From Hypericibacter adhaerens (GTDB lineage: Bacteria > Pseudomonadota > Alphaproteobacteria > Dongiales > Dongiaceae), in contig NZ_CP042582.1 of NCBI RefSeq assembly GCF_008728835.1, forward strand, positions 2,135,001-2,199,000: DNA of 64,000 bases. Direction: 5' to 3'. A program made the position numbers and the translations under genes. Shown here piece after piece: positions 1 to 9,112 of this stretch. Below the pieces are notes generated by a model. The model saw only the letters and a program-made list of their open reading frames with translations, had not been told where the DNA came from and made no database searches. The first letter of the stretch is position 1; every line of letters starts with the position of its first letter.

Positions 1-5
1 TGCGC

Positions 6-266
6 TCACAAAGAAGCTCCCGCGACGAGAACAGGCTGGATCTCAAGGATGTCCCCCTCCTTCACAGCATTGGCCGCAAGCGTTTGGCCCGGATTCATCG
101 TCTTGCCCGAAGTCGCGTTCGTCAAACTATAATCCGTGTCATGCGGCAGCTTCCAATTGTCGATAGCGGCTTGGATAACATCAGAGCCGTTTGTCGTATC
201 GACAAGGTTCACTTCCGCCTTTCGCGTTTGATCAGCAGTTCTCACGATGATCTTTAGTTCAGGCAT
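6..266 (-). CDS. Ubiquitin-like beta-grasp protein
   Basis: 86 residues whose pattern fits a ubiquitin fold: strand (ELKIIVRTA), strand (KAEVNLV), helix (about 27-38, DVIQAAIDNW), then YSLTN, a SGKTMNPGQTLA loop and a last strand GDILEIQPV. It resembles the EsaB/YukD-like Ubls found beside E1-like genes. The tail is VAGASL, not a free GG; an AG followed by three residues could be activated directly or after trimming (inference). It is the last visible gene of the operon and its ATG overlaps the end of the E1-like gene by 8 bases. Likely role: the protein modifier or sulfur carrier activated by that enzyme. The stop codon lies 6 bases from the window edge. Confidence 0.8.
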   Translation of the reverse strand: MPELKIIVRTADQTRKAEVNLVDTTNGSDVIQAAIDNWKLPHDTDYSLTNATSGKTMNPGQTLAANAVKEGDILEIQPVLVAGASL

Positions 267-1359
267 TTCCCCCTCGCATCTCGACGATCAATGGTGGTTC
301 TGTACGACAGACGAGAAACTTACACGGCATGCTCCGCCCGCTAAAGCGCCCAACGATCTCACCTAAGGTGAAATGATCGCGAATATCGAGGATCACGTCG
401 TCCGGCCGCTCGCTAATCGTCGCTGGAAACGTGTCGTCAAACTTGCTAGCAGACTCCCACACGATGGTCTCGCTTCCATCGACGGTGTAGCTGACTAAGA
501 TTGGCTCACTCGCCTCAATGGCGATCTCCGCATCCAGTGCGAGTTTCTCATCCACAATCAGACGATCACTGGCCAGCAATCGGGCTGTTTCGGGCAGGCG
601 CTGGCAGCATGGGCACTCCGGGTTAATGCCTACGGTGTTCCGCGAACTGGTTCCAGCTATCGTGTCGATAAGTATCTTGGCGGACTGCGCCTCTGTTGCG
701 CCGCCGAAGCGCAGACCGAGCGAGACGGCCACGCTTGAGGCCGCGGACGCCGTGATGATCGTCGTCGGGATCTTACCCTCAATGAAGGAGGCCTTCTTCA
801 ACCAGCCACAGGAGTAGCGCTTGCTAATCTTCTGGTAGACAGATGGTGGCAGGGCGCATTCATAGCATCCGCCCTGTTGTCCGGAGCCGAACGGGAAGAG
901 CTCGACGCTTCCATAGCGACTATCAAGCCCGACCACGACCAGGTCCTTCTTCGCAAGATAGGCGAGCGTATTGCATCGGATTCGCGCTTCAAAATTATCG
1001 ACACAGCAGAAAATAGTTGTGGTCGCGTTCAGTAGATCGAATGTGAGAGTTTTCCAGAAGTCGCCGACATAGGCATTCGCTCGGACGCCGGGGTCGAGTT
1101 CCTGGACACGTTGCGCCGCCACGCTCGCCTTCGTCTGGCCAATATCGGAATCCCGAAACAGGACGCTTCGGGTCAGGTTGTGTTCTTCGATCGTGTCGGG
1201 ATCGAAGACGTCGATGATCCCGACGCCGAGGAGGGCGAGGTTCTTCATCACCTCGTTGCCGACCGCGCCTGCGCCAATGACAGCGATACGGGCGGCCTTA
1301 AGAGCGTCTTGTGTGAACCAATCGATGGCTGAATGGCGAAGATAGCGACCGTCCGTCAT
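259..1359 (-). CDS. E1/ThiF/MoeB-like ubiquitin-activating enzyme
   Basis: 366 residues. The adenylation domain is complete: nucleotide loop GAGAVG (29-34), acidic residue in VFDPD (about 53), N61 and R64 in NLTRS, K77 in GQTKA and D121 in CVDN. Two CxxC pairs, C165/C168 (CYEC) and C249/C252 (CPCC), would hold the structural zinc as in MoeB/ThiF. C184 (YSCGW) lies where E1 enzymes often carry the thioester cysteine. About 110 C-terminal residues after the zinc site are not recognised and may bind a partner. Expected reaction: ATP-dependent adenylation of the Ubl C-terminus, possibly followed by thioester formation. ThiF/MoeB metabolism is less likely because no thiamin or molybdopterin genes are nearby. 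Confidence 0.87.
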   Translation of the reverse strand: MTDGRYLRHSAIDWFTQDALKAARIAVIGAGAVGNEVMKNLALLGVGIIDVFDPDTIEEHNLTRSVLFRDSDIGQTKASVAAQRVQELDPGVRANAYVGDFWKTLTFDLLNATTTIFCCVDNFEARIRCNTLAYLAKKDLVVVGLDSRYGSVELFPFGSGQQGGCYECALPPSVYQKISKRYSCGWLKKASFIEGKIPTTIITASAASSVAVSLGLRFGGATEAQSAKILIDTIAGTSSRNTVGINPECPCCQRLPETARLLASDRLIVDEKLALDAEIAIEASEPILVSYTVDGSETIVWESASKFDDTFPATISERPDDVILDIRDHFTLGEIVGRFSGRSMPCKFLVCRTEPPLIVEMRGGNA

Positions 1360-1362
1360 CCG

Positions 1363-1599
1363 CTATTCCCTCGTCAATCGCGCATAAGCGTCGTTGATAA
1401 TCTTCAGCGCCTCTTCGCTGTAGCTGCGCATAAATGGATCGACCGAATCCGGATGGTAGGTCTTCACGAGTTCCCGATAGCGGGTTTTGATCTCGACGAT
1501 TGATGCTGTGTCGGCAACACCCAAGATCTCACGCGGTGTTCTGGCCCGCATCTCATCGAGCTTGCTCGGAAGCGGCCCTTTCTTATTTGTCCACTGCAT
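1363..1599 (-). CDS. Minimal J-domain (DnaJ-like) protein
   Basis: 78 residues, nearly all J domain. PREILGV (helix I) leads to IKTRYRELVKTYHPD (helix II and the HPD tripeptide at 49-51, which stimulates DnaK ATPase) and EEALKIINDAYARL (helix III). There is no G/F region, zinc finger or substrate domain, so it is a dedicated Hsp70 co-chaperone rather than DnaJ itself. Its ATG overlaps the stop of the upstream membrane/OB gene (TGATG), and the E1-like gene starts 3 bases after its stop, so it is translationally coupled inside the Ubl operon. Inference: it may bring DnaK to modified proteins or to the membrane partner. Confidence 0.82.
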   Translation of the reverse strand: MQWTNKKGPLPSKLDEMRARTPREILGVADTASIVEIKTRYRELVKTYHPDSVDPFMRSYSEEALKIINDAYARLTRE

Positions 1600-2384
1600 C
1601 AGCGCACGCTCAGAATCATGCTTCGATCATTGATGATGATCTCAGGACCCCACCGGTTGTGATTGATGAGGAGGCCACGCACACGGATAGTCCTTCCCTT
1701 CATTCCTAAGATAAATTGTGGCCCACCCGAATTTCGGATCGATCCCCGGAAGAAGACGAGTTTGAAACCTTCCGCCCATTTTTTGCGCTCAAACATGACG
1801 GCAAAGTCAGACCCACGCCGACTGGTCCGAACTTCGACAACACGGCCTTCGAAAGTGACGACCTGACCAAAATGAGATCGGAAATTCCCCAGCGTCACGA
1901 GGCTCGGCGTGTAGTCCCGTCCATCGGTCGGCCGCGCCTGGGCACCAACCGGGTGAATAGCCGCGGCTTGGCACGCAACGCATCGACTTCCGTTCTCCGC
2001 TCGGATGAGATCGAAGCTTTCCGTGTGGTAGAATACTTTGCATGCCCCGCATTGGTAGAGTCCCCTTTTTTCGTTGAGGGCCTCGCCGGTAAAGGCGTCG
2101 TGCAGCCCCTTCAGGTCGCGGGGAGCAGCGGTCGAGCCTGATCCAATCTCACCAAATTTGATGCTGCTGCTGCCGGCGGGACGCGCAGGGCGGTAGGTAT
2201 TCTTCGCCTGCGGGGTAGCGGTTGTGGTGGACCGCTCCTGGGGCGAAAGGTTGGGCCGGCTTGGGCGACGGCTTCGCCAAGGCTTATTTAGCAGCCATAT
2301 GGCGAGGACGATGGCCGCAATGACTAAAAAACCTTCCATGACCAGAAGGGTCTTGTCCCCATCCTCAATGGCGGTCGGGGGCAA
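1599..2384 (-). CDS. Membrane-anchored treble-clef zinc / OB-fold protein of the Ubl operon
   Basis: First gene of the operon. One membrane helix (about 19-33) is followed by basic residues (NKPWRSRR), so the rest should be cytoplasmic. Next come a disordered linker (about 40-95), a zinc site with C112, C115, H120, C135 and C138 (CGAC...FYH...CVAC, treble-clef or degenerate RING-like), and a C-terminal OB fold (about 165-260, GQVVTFEGRVVEV to GRTIRVRGLL..PEIIIND) like the nucleic-acid/anticodon type. The longest frame starts at TTG 2384 with GGAG close upstream; an ATG at 2339 directly before the membrane helix is equally plausible. No whole-protein family was recognised. It could be an E3-like scaffold or substrate receptor (inference). 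Confidence 0.72.
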   Translation of the reverse strand: MPPTAIEDGDKTLLVMEGFLVIAAIVLAIWLLNKPWRSRRPSRPNLSPQERSTTTATPQAKNTYRPARPAGSSSIKFGEIGSGSTAAPRDLKGLHDAFTGEALNEKRGLYQCGACKVFYHTESFDLIRAENGSRCVACQAAAIHPVGAQARPTDGRDYTPSLVTLGNFRSHFGQVVTFEGRVVEVRTSRRGSDFAVMFERKKWAEGFKLVFFRGSIRNSGGPQFILGMKGRTIRVRGLLINHNRWGPEIIINDRSMILSVR

Positions 2385-2470
2385 TTCGCTCCAGCCGCAT
2401 CATCTCATGTTCAGGCAGACCGATTTGGTTGTAAATTGCCCAGAAAGCTTAATGCCTCGAATACGTTATT

Positions 2471-2483
2471 GAGGTTTCACCTC
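2471..2483. promoter_or_regulatory. Short palindrome upstream of the Ubl operon
   Basis: GAGGT-TTC-ACCTC is a perfect 5-bp-arm inverted repeat about 90 bases upstream of the first operon start. It could be an operator or a small hairpin. No convincing -35/-10 pair was found beside it. Confidence 0.2.
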
Positions 2484-2545
2484 CATGGGGGCGGTGGGTC
2501 ACGGTGTTAGCTGAGCGATGGCGTGGGTTGCCGACCTAATTGAAC

Positions 2546-2842
2546 ATGCAGCCCGGCAAACCGCTCGAGCCCGTCGTAGGTATTGGGCGATCCCGGTACG
2601 TGATCGACCCGTCACTATTCGATAGGCCGGTATTGGAAGATACGTGGAAGGGGGCGCAGGGCGACGCGCGGATTATAGATCCGGCGGCGGTCTATCGCGC
2701 TCTGGATGGTAGGATACAAATTGATCTGACTTACGACCAAACGACACAAGTCCTGGCTACCTTCCGTCTTCAGTTGAAGAACCGCTCACTCGGCAGTATT
2801 CGTCCTCCGCCCGATAACTATTGCCCAGTCACAGTCGTATAA
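2546..2842 (+). CDS. Doubtful small open frame, unrecognised
   Basis: 98 codons from ATG 2546, divergent from the Ubl operon. Composition is protein-like in places (YVIDPSLFDRPVLEDTWKG) but there is no ribosome-binding site, no recognised motif and no signal peptide. Another short frame (2518-2620) overlaps its start, which suggests either a decayed gene or chance. It lies in the same less G+C-rich stretch as the Ubl genes. Confidence 0.22.
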   Translation: MQPGKPLEPVVGIGRSRYVIDPSLFDRPVLEDTWKGAQGDARIIDPAAVYRALDGRIQIDLTYDQTTQVLATFRLQLKNRSLGSIRPPPDNYCPVTVV

Positions 2843-2994
2843 CCCGGCAGCGGGTTTTGACTGCAAGTGGACACGGCAAATTAAGGTGATTGCGGGTCCC
2901 CGCAACCACAACACAAGCCCCCAGGCCAAACGCGGGCAGGGCTCGCTTGTCTTGTCGAACCGGCTTCTCGGCGGACGCCTGAAGCACTATCTTC

Positions 2995-3210
2995 GCTTGA
3001 TATTGTTCATGTTTTGTTCTATGATGCCAGAGAACGAAGATTTGGTCGCCGCTATCGTCGGCGCTTGATCGCGGCCTGATACGGCCCTGATCCGGGCCTG
3101 TTATTCGAGACCTCCGTAAACCGAGGGATGCCTGAAAAAGGGCCTGTCTCCAGCGACTTGGAAAAGCTCGGCGCGGACCGACTCTTGTAAAGGCCCTGTT
3201 CTCAGGCGAA
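2995..3210 (+). repeat. SOS-promoter repeat element, copy A
   Basis: Homologous to copy B at 5433-5651. The shared order is CGCTTGAYATTGTTC, a LexA operator inside the promoter, a 64-base block (3061-3124) identical to 5502-5565 at 49 of 64 positions without gaps, a poorly conserved 64-base middle, and an identical 22-mer (3189-3210 and 5630-5651). The two 150-base bodies align without a gap. The body begins near GCCTGA and ends at TCAGGC, a short imperfect terminal inverted repeat. The frame open in copy B has two stops here. It may be a MITE-like repeat, a small RNA or a decayed small gene. Confidence 0.7.
2997..3025 (+). promoter_or_regulatory. LexA-controlled (SOS) promoter A
   Basis: TTGATA (2997-3002), a 17-base spacer and TATGAT (3020-3025) form a near-consensus sigma-70 promoter. 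The spacer holds GTTC (3005-3008), 7 bases, then GTTC (3016-3019), the alphaproteobacterial LexA operator. LexA bound there would block polymerase, so the transcript should be induced by DNA damage. Transcription runs into repeat copy A, toward the antiporter gene. Confidence 0.72.
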
Positions 3211-3556
3211 GTCGGCCGATGGCGAGCGGCTCGGCGGGTCATCTCAAGTCCGCCGAAGGCCCGTTGGGGTAAGGGAGCGACCTGCAGCCGTCCATCACGC
3301 TGCAGCTCGTTTCGCCGCGCGTCGGCCGAGCCGAAGCCCGAAAGGCATCTCGCCGTTGCCGCGGTTCGGCGCCGTTCTTTCCGTTTTTGCTGAAGGAGAG
3401 GTTGCTTTCCTATTTTCATGATCTTCCTGAGTTTTGGCGCCTCCGGCATTGGTCGCTGGCCCGGGAGCGTCGGATCAGGTATGGGGGAATGATGGCGCCG
3501 GTTGAGAAGGCCGGTCTTGCCATGTCGGGAGCGATGGGAGGGGGGACTGGCGGCGC
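3211..3556. other. Gene-free leader before the antiporter
   Basis: No supported gene, RNA or terminator was seen between repeat copy A and the antiporter start. A ribosome-binding site, GGGAGGGGGG, lies about 10 bases before the ATG at 3557. The SOS promoter upstream could read through into the antiporter. Confidence 0.4.
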
Positions 3557-5272
3557 ATGCATGACGAGGCACTTCTGATCGCGACCGTGGCCATGGCCTT
3601 CGTGCTGGCCTTCGGCTTCGGCTTCCTCGCCTATCATCTGCGCCTGCCGCCGCTGGTCGGTTACCTGCTGGCCGGGGTGGCGCTCGGACCCTTCACGCCG
3701 GGTTTCGTTGCCGACAGCGGCATGGCCGGGCAGCTCGCCGAGATGGGCGTGATCCTTCTCATGTTCGGCGTCGGTCTCCATTTCTCCGCCGCCGACCTCA
3801 TGGCCGTGCGCTGGGTCGCCGTCCCGGGCGCCATCGGCCAGATCCTGCTGGCGACGCTGCTGGGCACGGGCATGGCCATGGCCTGGGGCTGGAGCCTCGG
3901 CGCCGGCATCGTGCTCGGCCTCTGCCTCTCGGTCGCGAGCACGGTGGTGCTGCTGCGGGCGCTCGAGGATCGCAACCAGGTGACGAGCGCCAATGGCCGC
4001 ATCGCCGTCGGCTGGCTGATCGTGGAGGACCTGGCGATGGTGCTGGCGCTGGTGCTGCTGCCGGCCTTCGCCGAGCTCCTGGGCGGCCAGGCCGGCGAGC
4101 ATGCCGCCGAGGGCAATCTCCTGGTCAATCTCCTGATCACGCTGGGCAAGGTCGCGGCTTTCGTCACGGTCGCGATCCTGCTGGGTCCCAAGCTGGTGCC
4201 CTGGTTGCTCAAGCAGGTGGCGCGCACCGGCTCGCGCGAGCTCTTCACGCTCTCGGTCCTGGCGGTGGCGCTCGGGATCGCCTATGGCTCGGCCAAGCTC
4301 TTCGGCGTCTCCTTCGCGCTCGGCGCCTTCTTCGCCGGCGTGGTCTTGAGCGAATCCCATTTCAGCCATCGCGCCGCGGCGGACTCGTTGCCGCTCCAGG
4401 ATGCCTTCGCCATCCTGTTCTTCGTCTCGGTCGGCATGCTGTTCGACCCCTCGATCCTGATCCGCGAGCCGCTGGCCGTCCTGGCGGTGCTTCTCCTGAT
4501 CATCATCGGCAAGTCGATCCTGGCCTTCCTGATCGTCATCATCATGGGCTACCCGAAATCGACGGCGCTCACCGTCTCGGCCAGCCTCGCGCAGATCGGC
4601 GAGTTCTCCTTCATCCTGGCCGGGCTCGGAGTCTCCATGGGCCTGATGCCGGGCGAGGGCCGCGACCTGATCCTTGCCGGCGCCCTGCTGTCGATCACGC
4701 TCAATCCGCTGGCCTTCGGCGCGGTGGACAGGCTGCTCGCCTGGATGCGGCGCGGAACCTATGGCGAGAAGCGCCTCGCCCGCCTGCAGGGGCAGCTCGC
4801 CGAGCTGCGCAAGCGCACCGAGGCGCGCGAGGCCGAGCATGGGCTGCAGCTCAAGAACCTGGTCGAGCTGTTCCCGATCTTCGCCGATCTCGACGCCCAG
4901 GCGCGCGAGGATCTCCTGCTGCTGTTCCGCCCGCGCACCGCGGCACCCGGCGAGCGGATCATCCGCAAGGGCGACCGTCCGGACGCCGCCTATTTCATCT
5001 CCAAGGGGGGCGTGCAGGTGAGTGTGGGCGGGCGCGAGATTCCGCTCGGCCCCGGCGAGTTCTTCGGCGAGATGGCGCTGCTCAGCGGCGCCCGCCGGTC
5101 GGCGGACGTCACCGCGACCGACTACTGCCAGCTCCTCATGCTCGACCAGCGCGAGTTCCGTACCTTCGTGGCGCGGCACCCGCGGCTGCGCGAGCATCTG
5201 GACGAGCTGGCTGCCCAGCGCAGCGCCATGAACCGCGACGGTGCCGAGCCGAACTCCGTCCCGGCGGCCTGA
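3557..5272 (+). CDS. CPA2-family cation/proton antiporter with C-terminal cyclic-nucleotide domain
   Basis: 571 residues. An N-terminal Na+/H+-exchanger domain (about 1-400) has many membrane helices and the CPA2 signature LPPLVGYLLAGVALGP. Where KefB/YbaL-type proteins carry an RCK/TrkA-N domain, this one has a short coiled linker (about 395-425) and a cNMP-binding fold (about 430-560, ending FGEMALLSGARRSADVTA, with the Glu and Arg of a phosphate-binding cassette). Expected role: K+ or Na+ efflux coupled to proton entry, gated by cAMP or cGMP. The start has a strong upstream GGGAGGGGGG. The gene sits alone between two SOS-promoter repeat copies. Confidence 0.87.
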   Translation: MHDEALLIATVAMAFVLAFGFGFLAYHLRLPPLVGYLLAGVALGPFTPGFVADSGMAGQLAEMGVILLMFGVGLHFSAADLMAVRWVAVPGAIGQILLATLLGTGMAMAWGWSLGAGIVLGLCLSVASTVVLLRALEDRNQVTSANGRIAVGWLIVEDLAMVLALVLLPAFAELLGGQAGEHAAEGNLLVNLLITLGKVAAFVTVAILLGPKLVPWLLKQVARTGSRELFTLSVLAVALGIAYGSAKLFGVSFALGAFFAGVVLSESHFSHRAAADSLPLQDAFAILFFVSVGMLFDPSILIREPLAVLAVLLLIIIGKSILAFLIVIIMGYPKSTALTVSASLAQIGEFSFILAGLGVSMGLMPGEGRDLILAGALLSITLNPLAFGAVDRLLAWMRRGTYGEKRLARLQGQLAELRKRTEAREAEHGLQLKNLVELFPIFADLDAQAREDLLLLFRPRTAAPGERIIRKGDRPDAAYFISKGGVQVSVGGREIPLGPGEFFGEMALLSGARRSADVTATDYCQLLMLDQREFRTFVARHPRLREHLDELAAQRSAMNRDGAEPNSVPAA

Positions 5273-5432
5273 AGCATTCCGACCTGCCTGCGGGCGATAT
5301 TCCTGAGAGGCGCTGGCGTGCTGTCCGATCGAGACGGATCGGATGGTGCTCCAGGCGTGGTCGAAGATGATGTCGCTGTTCCGCGTCGCCGCCGCGCTGG
5401 CTCGGTGTCGGGAGGTGCCGCGGCAATAGCCC

Positions 5433-5651
5433 GCTTGACATTGTTCTCTTTTTGTTCTAAATATAATAGCTTTGCGTGTGGGCCGCCGTCGCCATCCTCA
5501 AGCGCCTGATCCTTGCCTGAGAGGCCCCTGTTCCGAGCCTGTTTTTCGAGTGCTCTGTAAGCTGACTATCGCTTTGAAAACGACTTATTTTCAATGGCTT
5601 GAAAAATATTGGTGGCAGGAGATCCCTGCAAAGGCCCTGTTCTCAGGCGAA
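5433..5651 (+). repeat. SOS-promoter repeat element, copy B
   Basis: Second copy of the element at 2995-3210, same orientation, 3 bases longer between the LexA operator and the conserved body. The body 5502-5651 aligns base for base with 3061-3210. Short imperfect terminal inverted repeats (GCCTGAGA near 5515, TCTCAGGC near 5641) bound a ~134-base core. After 5651 the copies no longer match. In this copy a frame stays open from TTG 5472 to the stop ending at 5813. Confidence 0.7.
5435..5463 (+). promoter_or_regulatory. LexA-controlled (SOS) promoter B
   Basis: TTGACA (5435-5440), a 17-base spacer, then TAAATA (5458-5463), with TATAAT overlapping at 5462-5467. The LexA operator is GTTC (5443-5446), 7 bases, GTTC (5454-5457). 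Layout matches promoter A. It reads toward the 3' end of the convergent liv operon, so its product must be short, antisense to livF, or ended before 5810. Confidence 0.75.
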
Positions 5652-5684
5652 TCCGTGAAAATCCCATGGGAGGAAGTGAAACCC

Positions 5685-5809
5685 ATGGCATGCGGGAAGG
5701 GCAAATCGCGGATTTCTGGCGGCGATAGCCGGCGAAGGCGGCGGAGAAAAGCGCGAGGTTGCCAGAGGAATCTGGCGCGGTTCCCGATCCCCCTTGATCG
5801 TGAACCGCG

Positions 5810-5813
<4 letters not shown>
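5685..5813 (+). CDS. Possible 42-residue basic peptide downstream of SOS promoter B
   Basis: ATG 5685 is preceded by GGGAGGAAG at a good distance. The 42 residues are rich in Arg/Lys/Gly with no recognised motif. A longer frame (TTG 5472 to 5813, 113 codons) covers repeat B and includes a KALFSGE stretch also readable in copy A, but copy A is broken by stops. The stop overlaps the end of livF. Coding status is doubtful. Confidence 0.25.
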
Positions 5814-6537
<724 letters not shown>

Positions 6538-6541
<4 letters not shown>

Positions 6542-7287
6542 GCCACCTTCCCCAGATAGGCGGCCTGGACGGCCTCGTTCGCCGCGATCTCGCCGGGCGT
6601 GCCTTCGGCCAGCATCGTGCCCTCGGCCAGGACCATGATGCGGTCGGCCAGATGGAACACGACCCGCATATCGTGCTCGATCAGCACGATCGAGAGCTTC
6701 TGGTCCTTGTGCAGCCTGCGGATGAGCTGGGTGACGTCATAGGTTTCCTGCTCGCCCATGCCGGCCGTCGGCTCGTCCAGGAGCAGCAGGCGTGGCTTGA
6801 GGGCGAGCGCCATCATGATCTCGGTCGCGCGCTGGTCGCCATGGGAGAGCTCGCCCACCAGACGGTTCGCCTTGTCGGCGAGCCCGCCCTGGCGCAGGAG
6901 CTCGGTGACGCGGGCCTGGACCTCGGTATCGGCGTGGCGCGAGAGCCAGGTCCGGGTGCGGTAGCCCGAGGCGACCTCGACCGCGATCCGGAGATTCTCC
7001 CGCGTCGTCATCTCGGGGAAGACCTCGGTGATCTGGAAGGTCCGGGCAATGCCGCGCCAGACCCGCCGGGCCGGGAGCAGCGCCGAGATATCCTCGCCGT
7101 CGAACAGGATGCGGCCGGAGGACTGCGTCAGGAATCCGCTGATGAGGTTGAAGAAGGTGGTCTTGCCGGCGCCGTTGGGCCCGATCACGGCCCGGAGCTC
7201 GCCGGGCTCGACGGTCATCGAGACGTTGTTGACGGCGACCAGCTCGCCGAAGCGCTTCGAGACGTTCTCGACCTTGAGCAGGGTCAC
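6538..7287 (-). CDS. livG: Branched-chain amino acid type ABC transporter ATP-binding protein LivG
   Basis: 249 residues from GTG 7287, which overlaps the livM stop (GTGA). Starting here gives normal LivG length and removes a long upstream frame that lies inside livM. Walker A GPNGAGKTT (about 36-44), LSHGDQRATEIMMALA signature (the LSHG form is usual for LivG), Walker B LLLLDEPTAGM, H-loop IEHDM. It pairs with LivF on the inner face of the membrane. Confidence 0.9.
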
Positions 7288-8246
7288 GATCCGCTCCTGC
7301 GCTTGATGAGGCCGAGCACGCCGCGCGGGAAGAACAGCACGATCAGCACGAAGAACAGGCCCACGAAGGACATCCAGTTCTCGGTGTGGCTCGAGACATA
7401 GTCCTGCAGCACCAGGAAGATCGCGGCGCCGATGAGCGGGCCCCAGAAGCTGCGCATGCCGCCCAGCACCGCCATGATGACGAAGTTCCCCGACTGGTCC
7501 CAGCGGATGGCGCGCGGGTCGATGAAGTCGTTCAGCAGCGCATAGAGGCAGCCGGCGACGCTGACGAAGAAGCAGGAGACCACCCAGGAGATCCAGATAT
7601 GGCGGTCGATGGGGATGCCCAGGAACCGGGCGCGGCGCTCGTTCTCGCGGATCGCCATCAGGGTGCGGCCGAAGGGCGAGCGCAGCAGGAAGGCCATGGC
7701 ACCGGCACAAATCGCGAAGATCGCCAGCACGAAGTAATAGAGCGCCTTGTTCTCGTGCAGGATATCGAGGGTGCCGATGCCGAAATCGATCGGTTGGCGC
7801 TGCCAGGCGCTGAGCCCGTCGTCGCCGCCGGTGACCGAGCTCCATTTGAAGGAGATGAAATAGAACACCTGGCCGAAGGCGATCGTCACCATGGCGAAGT
7901 AGACGCCGCGCAGCCTGATGATCAGCGGCCCGATCAGCCCGGCCGCCACGGTCCCGGCGACGATGCCGACCAGCATCGCCACGGGCGTGCTGGGGTAGAG
8001 ATACTTGATGGTCAGGGCGGTGCCGTAGCCGCCGAGGCCGAAATAGGCGGCGTGGCCGAAGGACAGCACGCCCGTGTAGCCCAGCAGGAAGTTGAGCGCC
8101 ATCGCGGCCAGCGCGTAGATCACCACGCGCGTGCCGAGCTCGACATAGCCGCCGATGCTCACCAGCCAGAACGGCGCCGTCAGCAGCAGCAGCCAGACCA
8201 GGGCGTTGCCGATATGCTTGTCGATATGTTTGTCGATCGCAGGCAT
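7284..8246 (-). CDS. livM: Branched-chain amino acid type ABC permease LivM
   Basis: 320 residues with about 8-9 hydrophobic segments and the LivM hallmark LLGYTGVLSFGHAAYFGLGGY (about 54-74). The cytoplasmic ERRARFLGI stretch is the probable coupling helix. Its start codon shares one base with the livH stop. Forms the channel with LivH. The N-terminus repeats DKHI twice, an unremarkable oddity. Confidence 0.88.
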   Translation of the reverse strand: MPAIDKHIDKHIGNALVWLLLLTAPFWLVSIGGYVELGTRVVIYALAAMALNFLLGYTGVLSFGHAAYFGLGGYGTALTIKYLYPSTPVAMLVGIVAGTVAAGLIGPLIIRLRGVYFAMVTIAFGQVFYFISFKWSSVTGGDDGLSAWQRQPIDFGIGTLDILHENKALYYFVLAIFAICAGAMAFLLRSPFGRTLMAIRENERRARFLGIPIDRHIWISWVVSCFFVSVAGCLYALLNDFIDPRAIRWDQSGNFVIMAVLGGMRSFWGPLIGAAIFLVLQDYVSSHTENWMSFVGLFFVLIVLFFPRGVLGLIKRRSGS

Positions 8247-9112
8247 CAGAAGCGACCCTCCTCGCCCAGGAGGCCTCGCGGCCTGACGATCAGCACCGCC
8301 GCCATGATCACGTAGATCACGGCCTCGCTCGCGGAGGGAAAGAACACGGTGGTGATGCCGGAGGCGGCACCGATCAGAAGGCCGCCGGCCAGCGTGCCCG
8401 GCAGGCTGCCGAGGCCGCCGACGATGATCGAGATGAAGCTCGGCATGATCAGGGAGTCGCCGATGGTGGGCTGGAGGCCCAGCATGCCGGCGGCAAGGAC
8501 GCCGGCGAGCCCCGCCAGATAGATGCCGAGGCCGAAATTGAGGTTGCGCAGCACCCGCACATTGACGCCCAGCACCGAGACGGTCTCCAGATCCAGCGTC
8601 CCGGCGCGGATGCGCAAGCCCAGCCGGGTCCGGTTCAGGATCACGAAGAGTCCGATCACCACCAGGGCCACCAGCACGATCATGAAGACGCGATAGCCGG
8701 TGAGGAAGAACAGGCTCGTGCTGAGGGGTGCCGCGAGCACGCCCGGGATCTGGTAGGGGAGGCTCTGTGCTCCCCAGATGAAGCGCGTGCCGTCCTGGAT
8801 CATGAAGGCGAGGCCGAAGGTCAGCAGCAGGCCATAGAGCGGATCGCGCCCATAGAGACGGCGGATCAGGACGCGCTCGATCGCGACGCCGATGAAGGCG
8901 ACGAGGAACGGCGAGACCAGCAGCGCGCCCCAGAAGCCGATATAGGGGATGAGCGTATAGGCGAGATAGCCGCCGATCGCCAGGAAGCCGCCATGGGCGA
9001 AATTGATCACGCCCGACAGGTTGAGGATGAGCGACAACCCCAGCGCCATCAGCGCGTAGAAGGCGCCGATGATGAGGCCGTTCATGAGATTGAAGAGCAC
9101 CAGCGTCGTCAT
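8246..9112 (-). CDS. livH: Branched-chain amino acid type ABC permease LivH
   Basis: 288 residues, highly hydrophobic. The N-terminal LMNGLIIGAFYALMALGLSL and NLSGVINFAHGGFLAIGGY stretches are typical of LivH. The tail VLIVRPRGLLGEEGRF is the family's normal C-terminus. It is the first permease of the operon, 157 bases after the binding-protein gene; that gap shows no gene and no strong hairpin. Confidence 0.88.
   Translation of the reverse strand: MTTLVLFNLMNGLIIGAFYALMALGLSLILNLSGVINFAHGGFLAIGGYLAYTLIPYIGFWGALLVSPFLVAFIGVAIERVLIRRLYGRDPLYGLLLTFGLAFMIQDGTRFIWGAQSLPYQIPGVLAAPLSTSLFFLTGYRVFMIVLVALVVIGLFVILNRTRLGLRIRAGTLDLETVSVLGVNVRVLRNLNFGLGIYLAGLAGVLAAGMLGLQPTIGDSLIMPSFISIIVGGLGSLPGTLAGGLLIGAASGITTVFFPSASEAVIYVIMAAVLIVRPRGLLGEEGRF

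What the first reader, a model, noticed from the sequence alone, without database searches (positions are those of the whole stretch)
6..2384. Four-gene ubiquitin-like operon: Ubl, E1-like enzyme, mini J-protein and membrane zinc/OB protein
Seen: four coupled genes (overlaps of 1-8 bases or a 3-base gap) encode a beta-grasp Ubl, an E1/ThiF enzyme with all adenylation residues and both zinc CxxC pairs, a bare J domain with HPD, and a membrane-anchored treble-clef/OB protein. Known: bacterial Ubl-E1 operons (Bil, Bub, CBASS Cap2 and others) normally bring an E2 or JAB peptidase. Inference: here a J-protein and a membrane zinc/OB protein may link Ubl modification to Hsp70 and to a nucleic-acid or membrane target. 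The operon reaches the window edge, so E2/JAB genes may sit just outside. I do not recall this exact combination being described.
Basis: partly seen in the sequence, partly recalled or inferred. Interest (0 to 1): 0.85.

Follow-up and report, generated by a model that had tools for sequence, protein, structure and literature searches.

The report
Mobile ubiquitin-like operon with chaperone helper
A bacterium carries, on what looks like acquired DNA, part of a ubiquitin-like protein-tagging gene set that two relatives hold complete, with two unusual helpers (a mini co-chaperone and a membrane protein) that may steer the tag, possibly against phages.

Summary
In detail: four overlapping minus-strand genes (Zn/OB membrane protein, J-protein, E1, Ubl) lie at 2384..6. 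For the window's own genome this is inference, because the adjoining stretch is withheld. So this is most likely a six-gene Ubl-conjugation operon, not an E2-less one. The E1 is not MoeB or ThiF. The Ubl models like ubiquitin/SUMO and has a conserved C-terminal Gly (3 of 3), followed here by a three-residue tail. The operon is rare, low-GC and sporadic; in the two relatives it sits beside R-M genes in a prophage or some kilobases from a TIR gene. Best reading: a mobile Ubl-conjugation system, probably defensive, in which a J-protein and a membrane Zn/OB protein choose targets; those last roles are guesses. It does not fit Bil, CBASS Cap2 or the 2006 types 6a-6e. Verdict: new variant of a known kind.

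The parts
1599..2384 (-). Zn/OB protein: N-terminal hydrophobic segment, Pro-rich linker, four-Cys zinc module (residues about 89-146), C-terminal OB fold; TTG start at 2384 or ATG at 2339
   Evidence: ORF; hydropathy; relatives 50 and 48% identical; model and OB matches; zinc module 4 Cys invariant in 5 of 5 rows
1363..1599 (-). J-protein, bare J domain with HPD
   Evidence: PF00226 42.3 bits, cut-off 27.8; HPD kept in 3 of 3
259..1359 (-). E1-like enzyme: one ThiF adenylation domain, CxxC...CPCC, candidate catalytic Cys184 in RYSCG, extra C-terminal region
   Evidence: PF00899 136.1 bits; residues invariant in 3 of 3; RYSCG also in Crinalium
6..266 (-). Ubl, beta-grasp, conserved C-terminal VLVAG plus an ASL tail in this copy
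   Evidence: alignment; model and fold matches
1..3531 (.). part, inside the window, of a lower-GC stretch not shared with the one congener compared (G001); homology to G001 ends at 3532
   Evidence: GC 0.566 in the operon against 0.672 right of 3556; profile; blastn against G001 stops at 3532

Best explanation
These are the first four genes of a mobile six-gene ubiquitin-like conjugation operon: Zn/OB membrane protein, J-protein, E1, Ubl, E2, JAB. Proposed cycle: the JAB peptidase trims the Ubl tail to the conserved Gly; the E1 adenylates it and takes it as a thioester on Cys184; the E2 takes it on its Cys next to HPN and joins it to a target; the JAB peptidase can remove it. The J-protein brings Hsp70-bound or unassembled clients, and the membrane-tethered Zn/OB protein acts as receptor or scaffold at the membrane, perhaps binding nucleic acid. 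The most likely purpose is defence against phages or other mobile DNA. Shown by sequence: the four genes here; all six in two relatives; the catalytic motifs. Inferred: E2/JAB in this genome, the chemistry, the purpose. Guess: the J and Zn/OB roles. My odds: conjugation core 0.85, defence 0.55, roles as stated 0.3.
For: Same gene order in L011 and L014, 2 of 2 complete relatives. E2 of G360: PF00179 43.7 bits against 27; JAB of G360: PF14464 38 against 25 (L014's E2 and JAB were not scanned with Pfam). HPN and Cys of the E2 kept in 3 of 3 E2s, G360, L014 and Crinalium. JAMM residues kept in the 3 of 3 JABs of the same sources. Ubl VLVAG kept in 3 of 3. E1 Cys184, both CxxC pairs, N61, R69, K77, D121 kept in 3 of 3. 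Sporadic: Zn/OB found in the own genome and G360 only of 385 class genomes, in G360 alone of 82 genomes of its family, and in none of the 16 other genomes of the own family (one false match rejected). Lower GC. Defence neighbours: type II R-M genes next to L014's operon, between terminase/portal and endolysin genes; a TIR protein matching ThsB (83.6 bits) 3.7 kb before L011's operon.
Against: E2 and JAB were not seen in the window's own genome, since the adjoining stretch is withheld; an E2 profile search gave no match in what could be read of G000 (8 of 18 candidates scored). No experiment shows conjugation or phage protection. Only three members with J and Zn/OB were found, so co-occurrence rests on few cases. 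R64 of the E1 is Lys in L014. The L014 hydrophobic segment is weak (1.73 over 19 residues). PADLOC's models see only the general E1 domain here (best E1-E2 model 71.2 bits). Defence genes near an operon on mobile DNA are common and do not prove function.
Confidence: 0.55

Rival explanations
1. Protein quality-control or DNA-damage stress system: the J-protein feeds misfolded clients to Ubl tagging, and mobility is incidental.
For: J-protein kept in 3 of 3 operons; a UmuD-like gene (PHROG) and an ORF that I read as UmuC upstream of L014's operon; Bub operons are often paired with DNA-damage-responsive regulators and are not shown to stop phages (PMC13373217, passages).
Against: Rarity and sporadic spread; R-M and TIR neighbours.
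Confidence: 0.25
2. Phage-serving function carried by prophages: superinfection exclusion, counter-defence or host take-over.
For: L014's operon lies between terminase/portal and endolysin genes; G360's operon lies a few kilobases from terminase-small-subunit-like and primase-like genes.
Against: To the right of the window copy I recognised, by eye in the ORF list of 1-9000, an antiporter and ABC-transporter genes and no phage gene (no family search was run on these); a cargo defence set on a prophage looks the same as this rival.
Confidence: 0.12
3. In this genome the set is a four-gene remnant or an E2-less variant using another route.
For: No E2 match in the readable part of G000; the Ubl has a three-residue tail after Gly that needs a peptidase.
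Against: All four ORFs are intact with tight junctions; E2 and JAB follow the Ubl in 2 of 2 relatives.
Confidence: 0.08
4. Sulfur-carrier pathway (ThiS/ThiF or MoaD/MoeB).
For: Shared ThiF adenylation domain.
Against: Below NCBIfam cut-offs (ThiF 106.3 against 275.25; MoeB PRK05690 89.8 against 266); the own genome has a separate MoeB over that cut-off (295 against 266); in a 17-row E1 tree the operon E1s lie apart from the four MoeB/ThiF rows (support 93/99, not starred); the relatives have E2 and JAB.
Confidence: 0.03

Closest known systems
Bil (bacterial ISG15-like) operons
   Same: Ubl, E1, E2 and JAB from one operon; in Bil the peptidase BilC opens the C-terminal Gly of the Ubl (PMC11354881, passages), which I infer here too
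   Different: Bil: Ubl with two domains, E1 with two adenylation domains, E2 with a CEHH motif (PMC11354881, passages). Here: one Ubl domain, one adenylation domain, HPN-type E2 in relatives, plus J and Zn/OB genes
Bub (bacterial ubiquitination-like) operons
   Same: Bacterial Ubl-E1-E2-peptidase operons, purpose not proven (PMC13373217 and PMC12687455, passages)
   Different: The defining papers (Gong 2025, Ye 2026) are not held, so not compared in detail
Iyer 2006 operon types 6a-6e (PMC1779556, Table 1)
   Same: E1, E2, JAB and, in 6d and 6e, Ubl in patchy operons
   Different: 6a-6c have E2-E1 proteins, 6d an E2 without the classical His, 6e mostly repeated Ubls with an inactive E2 and mostly JAB-E1 fusions; no J-protein in the table
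Crinalium epipsammum plasmid pCRI9333.03 E1-Ubl-Ubl-E2-JAB cluster
   Same: E1 31% identical to the window E1, E2 30% identical to G360's, HPN, JAMM
   Different: No J-protein is annotated in the stretch read, and the Zn/OB protein finds no match in that record; two Ubl genes; the second CxxC pair of the E1 is not kept

Membership tests
Bil | Ubl with two Ubl domains | tested here: not met
   86 aa, one domain
Bil | E1 with inactive plus active adenylation domain | tested here: not met
   366 aa, one ThiF match
Bil | E2 with CEHH motif | not testable with these tools
   The window's own E2 cannot be read; relatives' E2s have HPN and Cys, CEHH spacing was not compared
Bub | features defined in Gong 2025 and Ye 2026 | not testable with these tools
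   papers not held
Type II CBASS Cap2 | E2-E1 fusion acting on a CD-NTase | tested here: not met
   The ThiF match begins at residue 16, so there is no room for an N-terminal E2 domain; no nucleotidyltransferase recognised by eye among the ORFs of L011 and L014, not searched by profile
Iyer 2006 type 6d | E2 lacking the classical His | tested here: not met
   in relatives only: HPN kept in 3 of 3 E2s; the own E2 is not readable
ThiF / MoeB | curated NCBIfam cut-off | tested here: not met
   106.3 against 275.25 and 89.8 against 266 bits
J-domain proteins | PF00226 match and HPD | tested here: met
   42.3 against 27.8 bits; HPD
Ubiquitin-like beta-grasp fold | Ub fold | tested here: met
   model and fold matches; Pfam sub-threshold
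OB fold (C-terminal part of the Zn/OB protein) | OB barrel | tested here: met
   Z 11.2 over 90 residues to an AsnRS; the five models' mean pLDDT run from 83.1 to 48.2
RING finger E3 | eight zinc ligands (recalled) | tested here: not met
   only four invariant Cys, and one invariant His, in 5 of 5 zinc modules; no RING match in Pfam at E up to 10
Ubiquitin-conjugating enzyme (relatives' E2) | PF00179 cut-off | tested here: met
   G360 E2 43.7 against 27 bits; L014 E2 not scanned with Pfam; own E2 not readable

The most novel reading that the evidence does not exclude
A chaperone-coupled ubiquitin-like ligation system in bacteria: the J-protein hands Hsp70-held clients (for example unassembled phage proteins) to the E2, and the membrane Zn/OB protein serves as an E3-like receptor, a bacterial counterpart in logic to the eukaryotic Hsp70-linked ligase CHIP (CHIP recalled, not looked up).
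Probability: 0.22. Interest if true: 0.85.

Novelty: new variant of a known kind. Interest (0 to 1): 0.6.

Why it matters
Bacterial Ubl systems are known, but how they choose their targets is, as far as I recall, mostly open. An operon that carries its own J-protein and a membrane Zn/OB protein next to an E1/E2/JAB set of eukaryotic type offers a small, testable model of target choice, and a possible link between Hsp70 and Ubl tagging in bacteria.

Tried and rejected
Sulfur-carrier reading rejected. RING/U-box reading of the zinc module: attractive by eye, but four Cys only and no Pfam support; the zinc module was not folded on its own, and the fold search barely tests it. Zn/OB hits rejected as not homologous or too weak: G001 (E 4e-4, 28%, a stop inside) and G698 (E 8.9e-4, partial). 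Zinc-ribbon-only E2 hits in three genomes rejected. Limits of the genome draws: only 6 to 8 first-look candidates per genome were scored. E1 against plasmids: 49 records, none covering 80% of the query, best Crinalium at 37%; against phages: 4 records. The genome-contig scan gave one distant ThiF-type protein (ORFs). Single-protein viral scans found nothing. Vibrio and Paraburkholderia plasmid hits hold the zinc module without the OB part. Further viral-contig scans gave only the L014 contig or, besides it, ten distant E1 loci. No match to the L014 operon DNA in phages or E. coli, none for its Ubl in plasmids, none for its E2 in phages; G360's E2 matched only Crinalium in plasmids. An empty site was not resolved: homology to G001 simply stops at 3532. 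The E1 tree used 17 rows chosen by me: six of the ten further viral E1 loci, and five plasmid-borne rows including Crinalium; one row (the own JAB-E1 protein) was cut by its first 170 residues. Paper searches for the gene combination gave nothing matching.

Full report
What is there. Four minus-strand genes, read right to left: Zn/OB 2384..1599, J 1599..1363, E1 1359..259, Ubl 266..6, with a 1-base overlap, a 3-base gap and an 8-base overlap. This matches the finding. The Zn/OB gene has no Pfam or PADLOC family and only a sub-threshold NCBIfam match; its first residues are hydrophobic (19-residue hydropathy 2.65), so a membrane anchor is likely but predicted only.

Relatives. A search for the Zn/OB protein in 385 class genomes found the own genome and one other, G360, 53% identical. 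Scans of viral contigs with E1 and Zn/OB alignments found one contig, L014 = L025. Both hold the same order: Zn/OB, J, E1, Ubl, then two more genes. In G360 these are an E2 (PF00179, 43.7 bits against 27) and a JAB peptidase (PF14464, 38 against 25); L014's align with them. Identities of G360 and L014 to the window: Ubl 59 and 64%, Zn/OB 50 and 48%, E1 54 and 43%, J 37 and 40%.

Chemistry. The E1 keeps the glycine-rich loop, N61, R69, K77, D121, both CxxC pairs and Cys184 in 3 of 3 (R64 is Lys in L014). That Cys184 is the thioester Cys is inference from its place after the first CxxC. The E2s keep HPN and Cys, and the JABs the Glu, His-x-His, Ser and Asp of JAMM, in 3 of 3 including Crinalium (the motif names are recalled). 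The Ubl has VLVAG in 3 of 3; the window copy has ASL after it. By profile the E1 scores best against eukaryotic UBA1 (112.8 bits, two stretches), SAE2 (90.5) and UBA3 (83.3), then MccB (79.7), MoeB (78.7) and ThiF (69); the UBA1 score sums two domains, so this is a hint only. Nearly all of the 60 listed of 236 PDB matches of the E2 profile carry names of ubiquitin-conjugating enzymes. PADLOC's CBASS-type E1-E2 models match the E1 domain (best 71.2 bits), as expected for shared E1 ancestry.

Not a cofactor pathway. The E1 misses the NCBIfam cut-offs for ThiF and MoeB by far; the genome has its own MoeB. In a 17-row tree the three operon E1s stand together (93/99) with Crinalium next (84/94), apart from the MoeB/ThiF rows; several branches are long, these supports are not starred and the root is arbitrary.

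Folds. The Ubl model (pLDDT 73.4) matches ubiquitin, SUMO and ISG15. The Zn/OB model matches OB domains of AsnRS/AspRS, RPA and telomere proteins from about residue 72 of the folded piece on. The zinc module shows a hairpin plus helix in the model but was not tested alone; four Cys are invariant in 5 of 5 modules. The module also occurs as a 70-residue protein on a Vibrio plasmid.

Mobility and context. Operon GC is 0.566 against 0.672 for the window right of 3556; in L011 it is 0.518 against about 0.63 on both sides. Homology to the one congener compared stops at 3532. L014's operon lies between terminase/portal and endolysin genes, with a UmuD-like gene upstream and a type II R-M pair downstream. 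G360's operon has a TIR protein (ThsB model 83.6 bits) and an ORF that I read as an NTPase (weak PADLOC matches only) upstream, with IS110, another transposase, terminase-small-subunit-like and primase-like genes around. In G360's family 1 of 82 genomes has the Zn/OB protein, G360 itself; of 398 phylum genomes only the own genome has a full match, besides one weak partial match; of the 16 other genomes of the own family none has a credible one. These draws overlap and are not summed, and each scored few candidates per genome in the large draws.

Reading. A mobile Ubl-conjugation system, probably defensive. The J and Zn/OB roles are guesses. Literature: Iyer 2006 (PMC1779556; outline, passages and Table 1 seen) lists patchy E1/E2/JAB operons, none matching; its text has no 'chaperone' and no 'DnaJ' (search listing). 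Bil features are from PMC11354881 (passages). Bub statements are from PMC13373217 (passages); its defining papers could not be read. PMC12355090 and PMC12687455 were seen in passages.

Noticed in passing
L048 2385-7155 (own genome, C1 about 4.164-4.169 Mb): A second Ubl-type cluster in the same genome: WYL regulator (Pfam), small Ubl-like ORF (my reading), 125-aa ORF without Pfam match, JAB-E1 fusion (JAB part my reading; ThiF by Pfam), near a terminase; it resembles Iyer's type 6e or the Bub kind
   Followed up: partly
L012 5971-6183; L013 5980-6492: The zinc module occurs alone or with another tail in plasmid proteins, one of them after a DNA cytosine methyltransferase
   Followed up: partly
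L014 5983-7107; L008 8001-9170: The extra C-terminal part of the E1 carries CxxC pairs in L014 and Crinalium that the window and G360 lack
   Followed up: no
L008 9174-9751: The Crinalium plasmid cluster has two adjacent, similar Ubl genes, one ending in EGGY
   Followed up: no
L015, L016, L018, L020, L021, L023: Viral-contig E1-like proteins (open frames of 227-268 residues) form a separate group in the tree (100/99)
   Followed up: no
L014 3005-4668: A UmuD-like gene (PHROG) and an ORF that I read as UmuC lie directly upstream of the operon, which hints at DNA-damage control
   Followed up: no
window 2540-2842: A 100-residue divergent ORF upstream of the operon, with only a sub-threshold Pfam match (17.2 against 25 bits)
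   Followed up: partly
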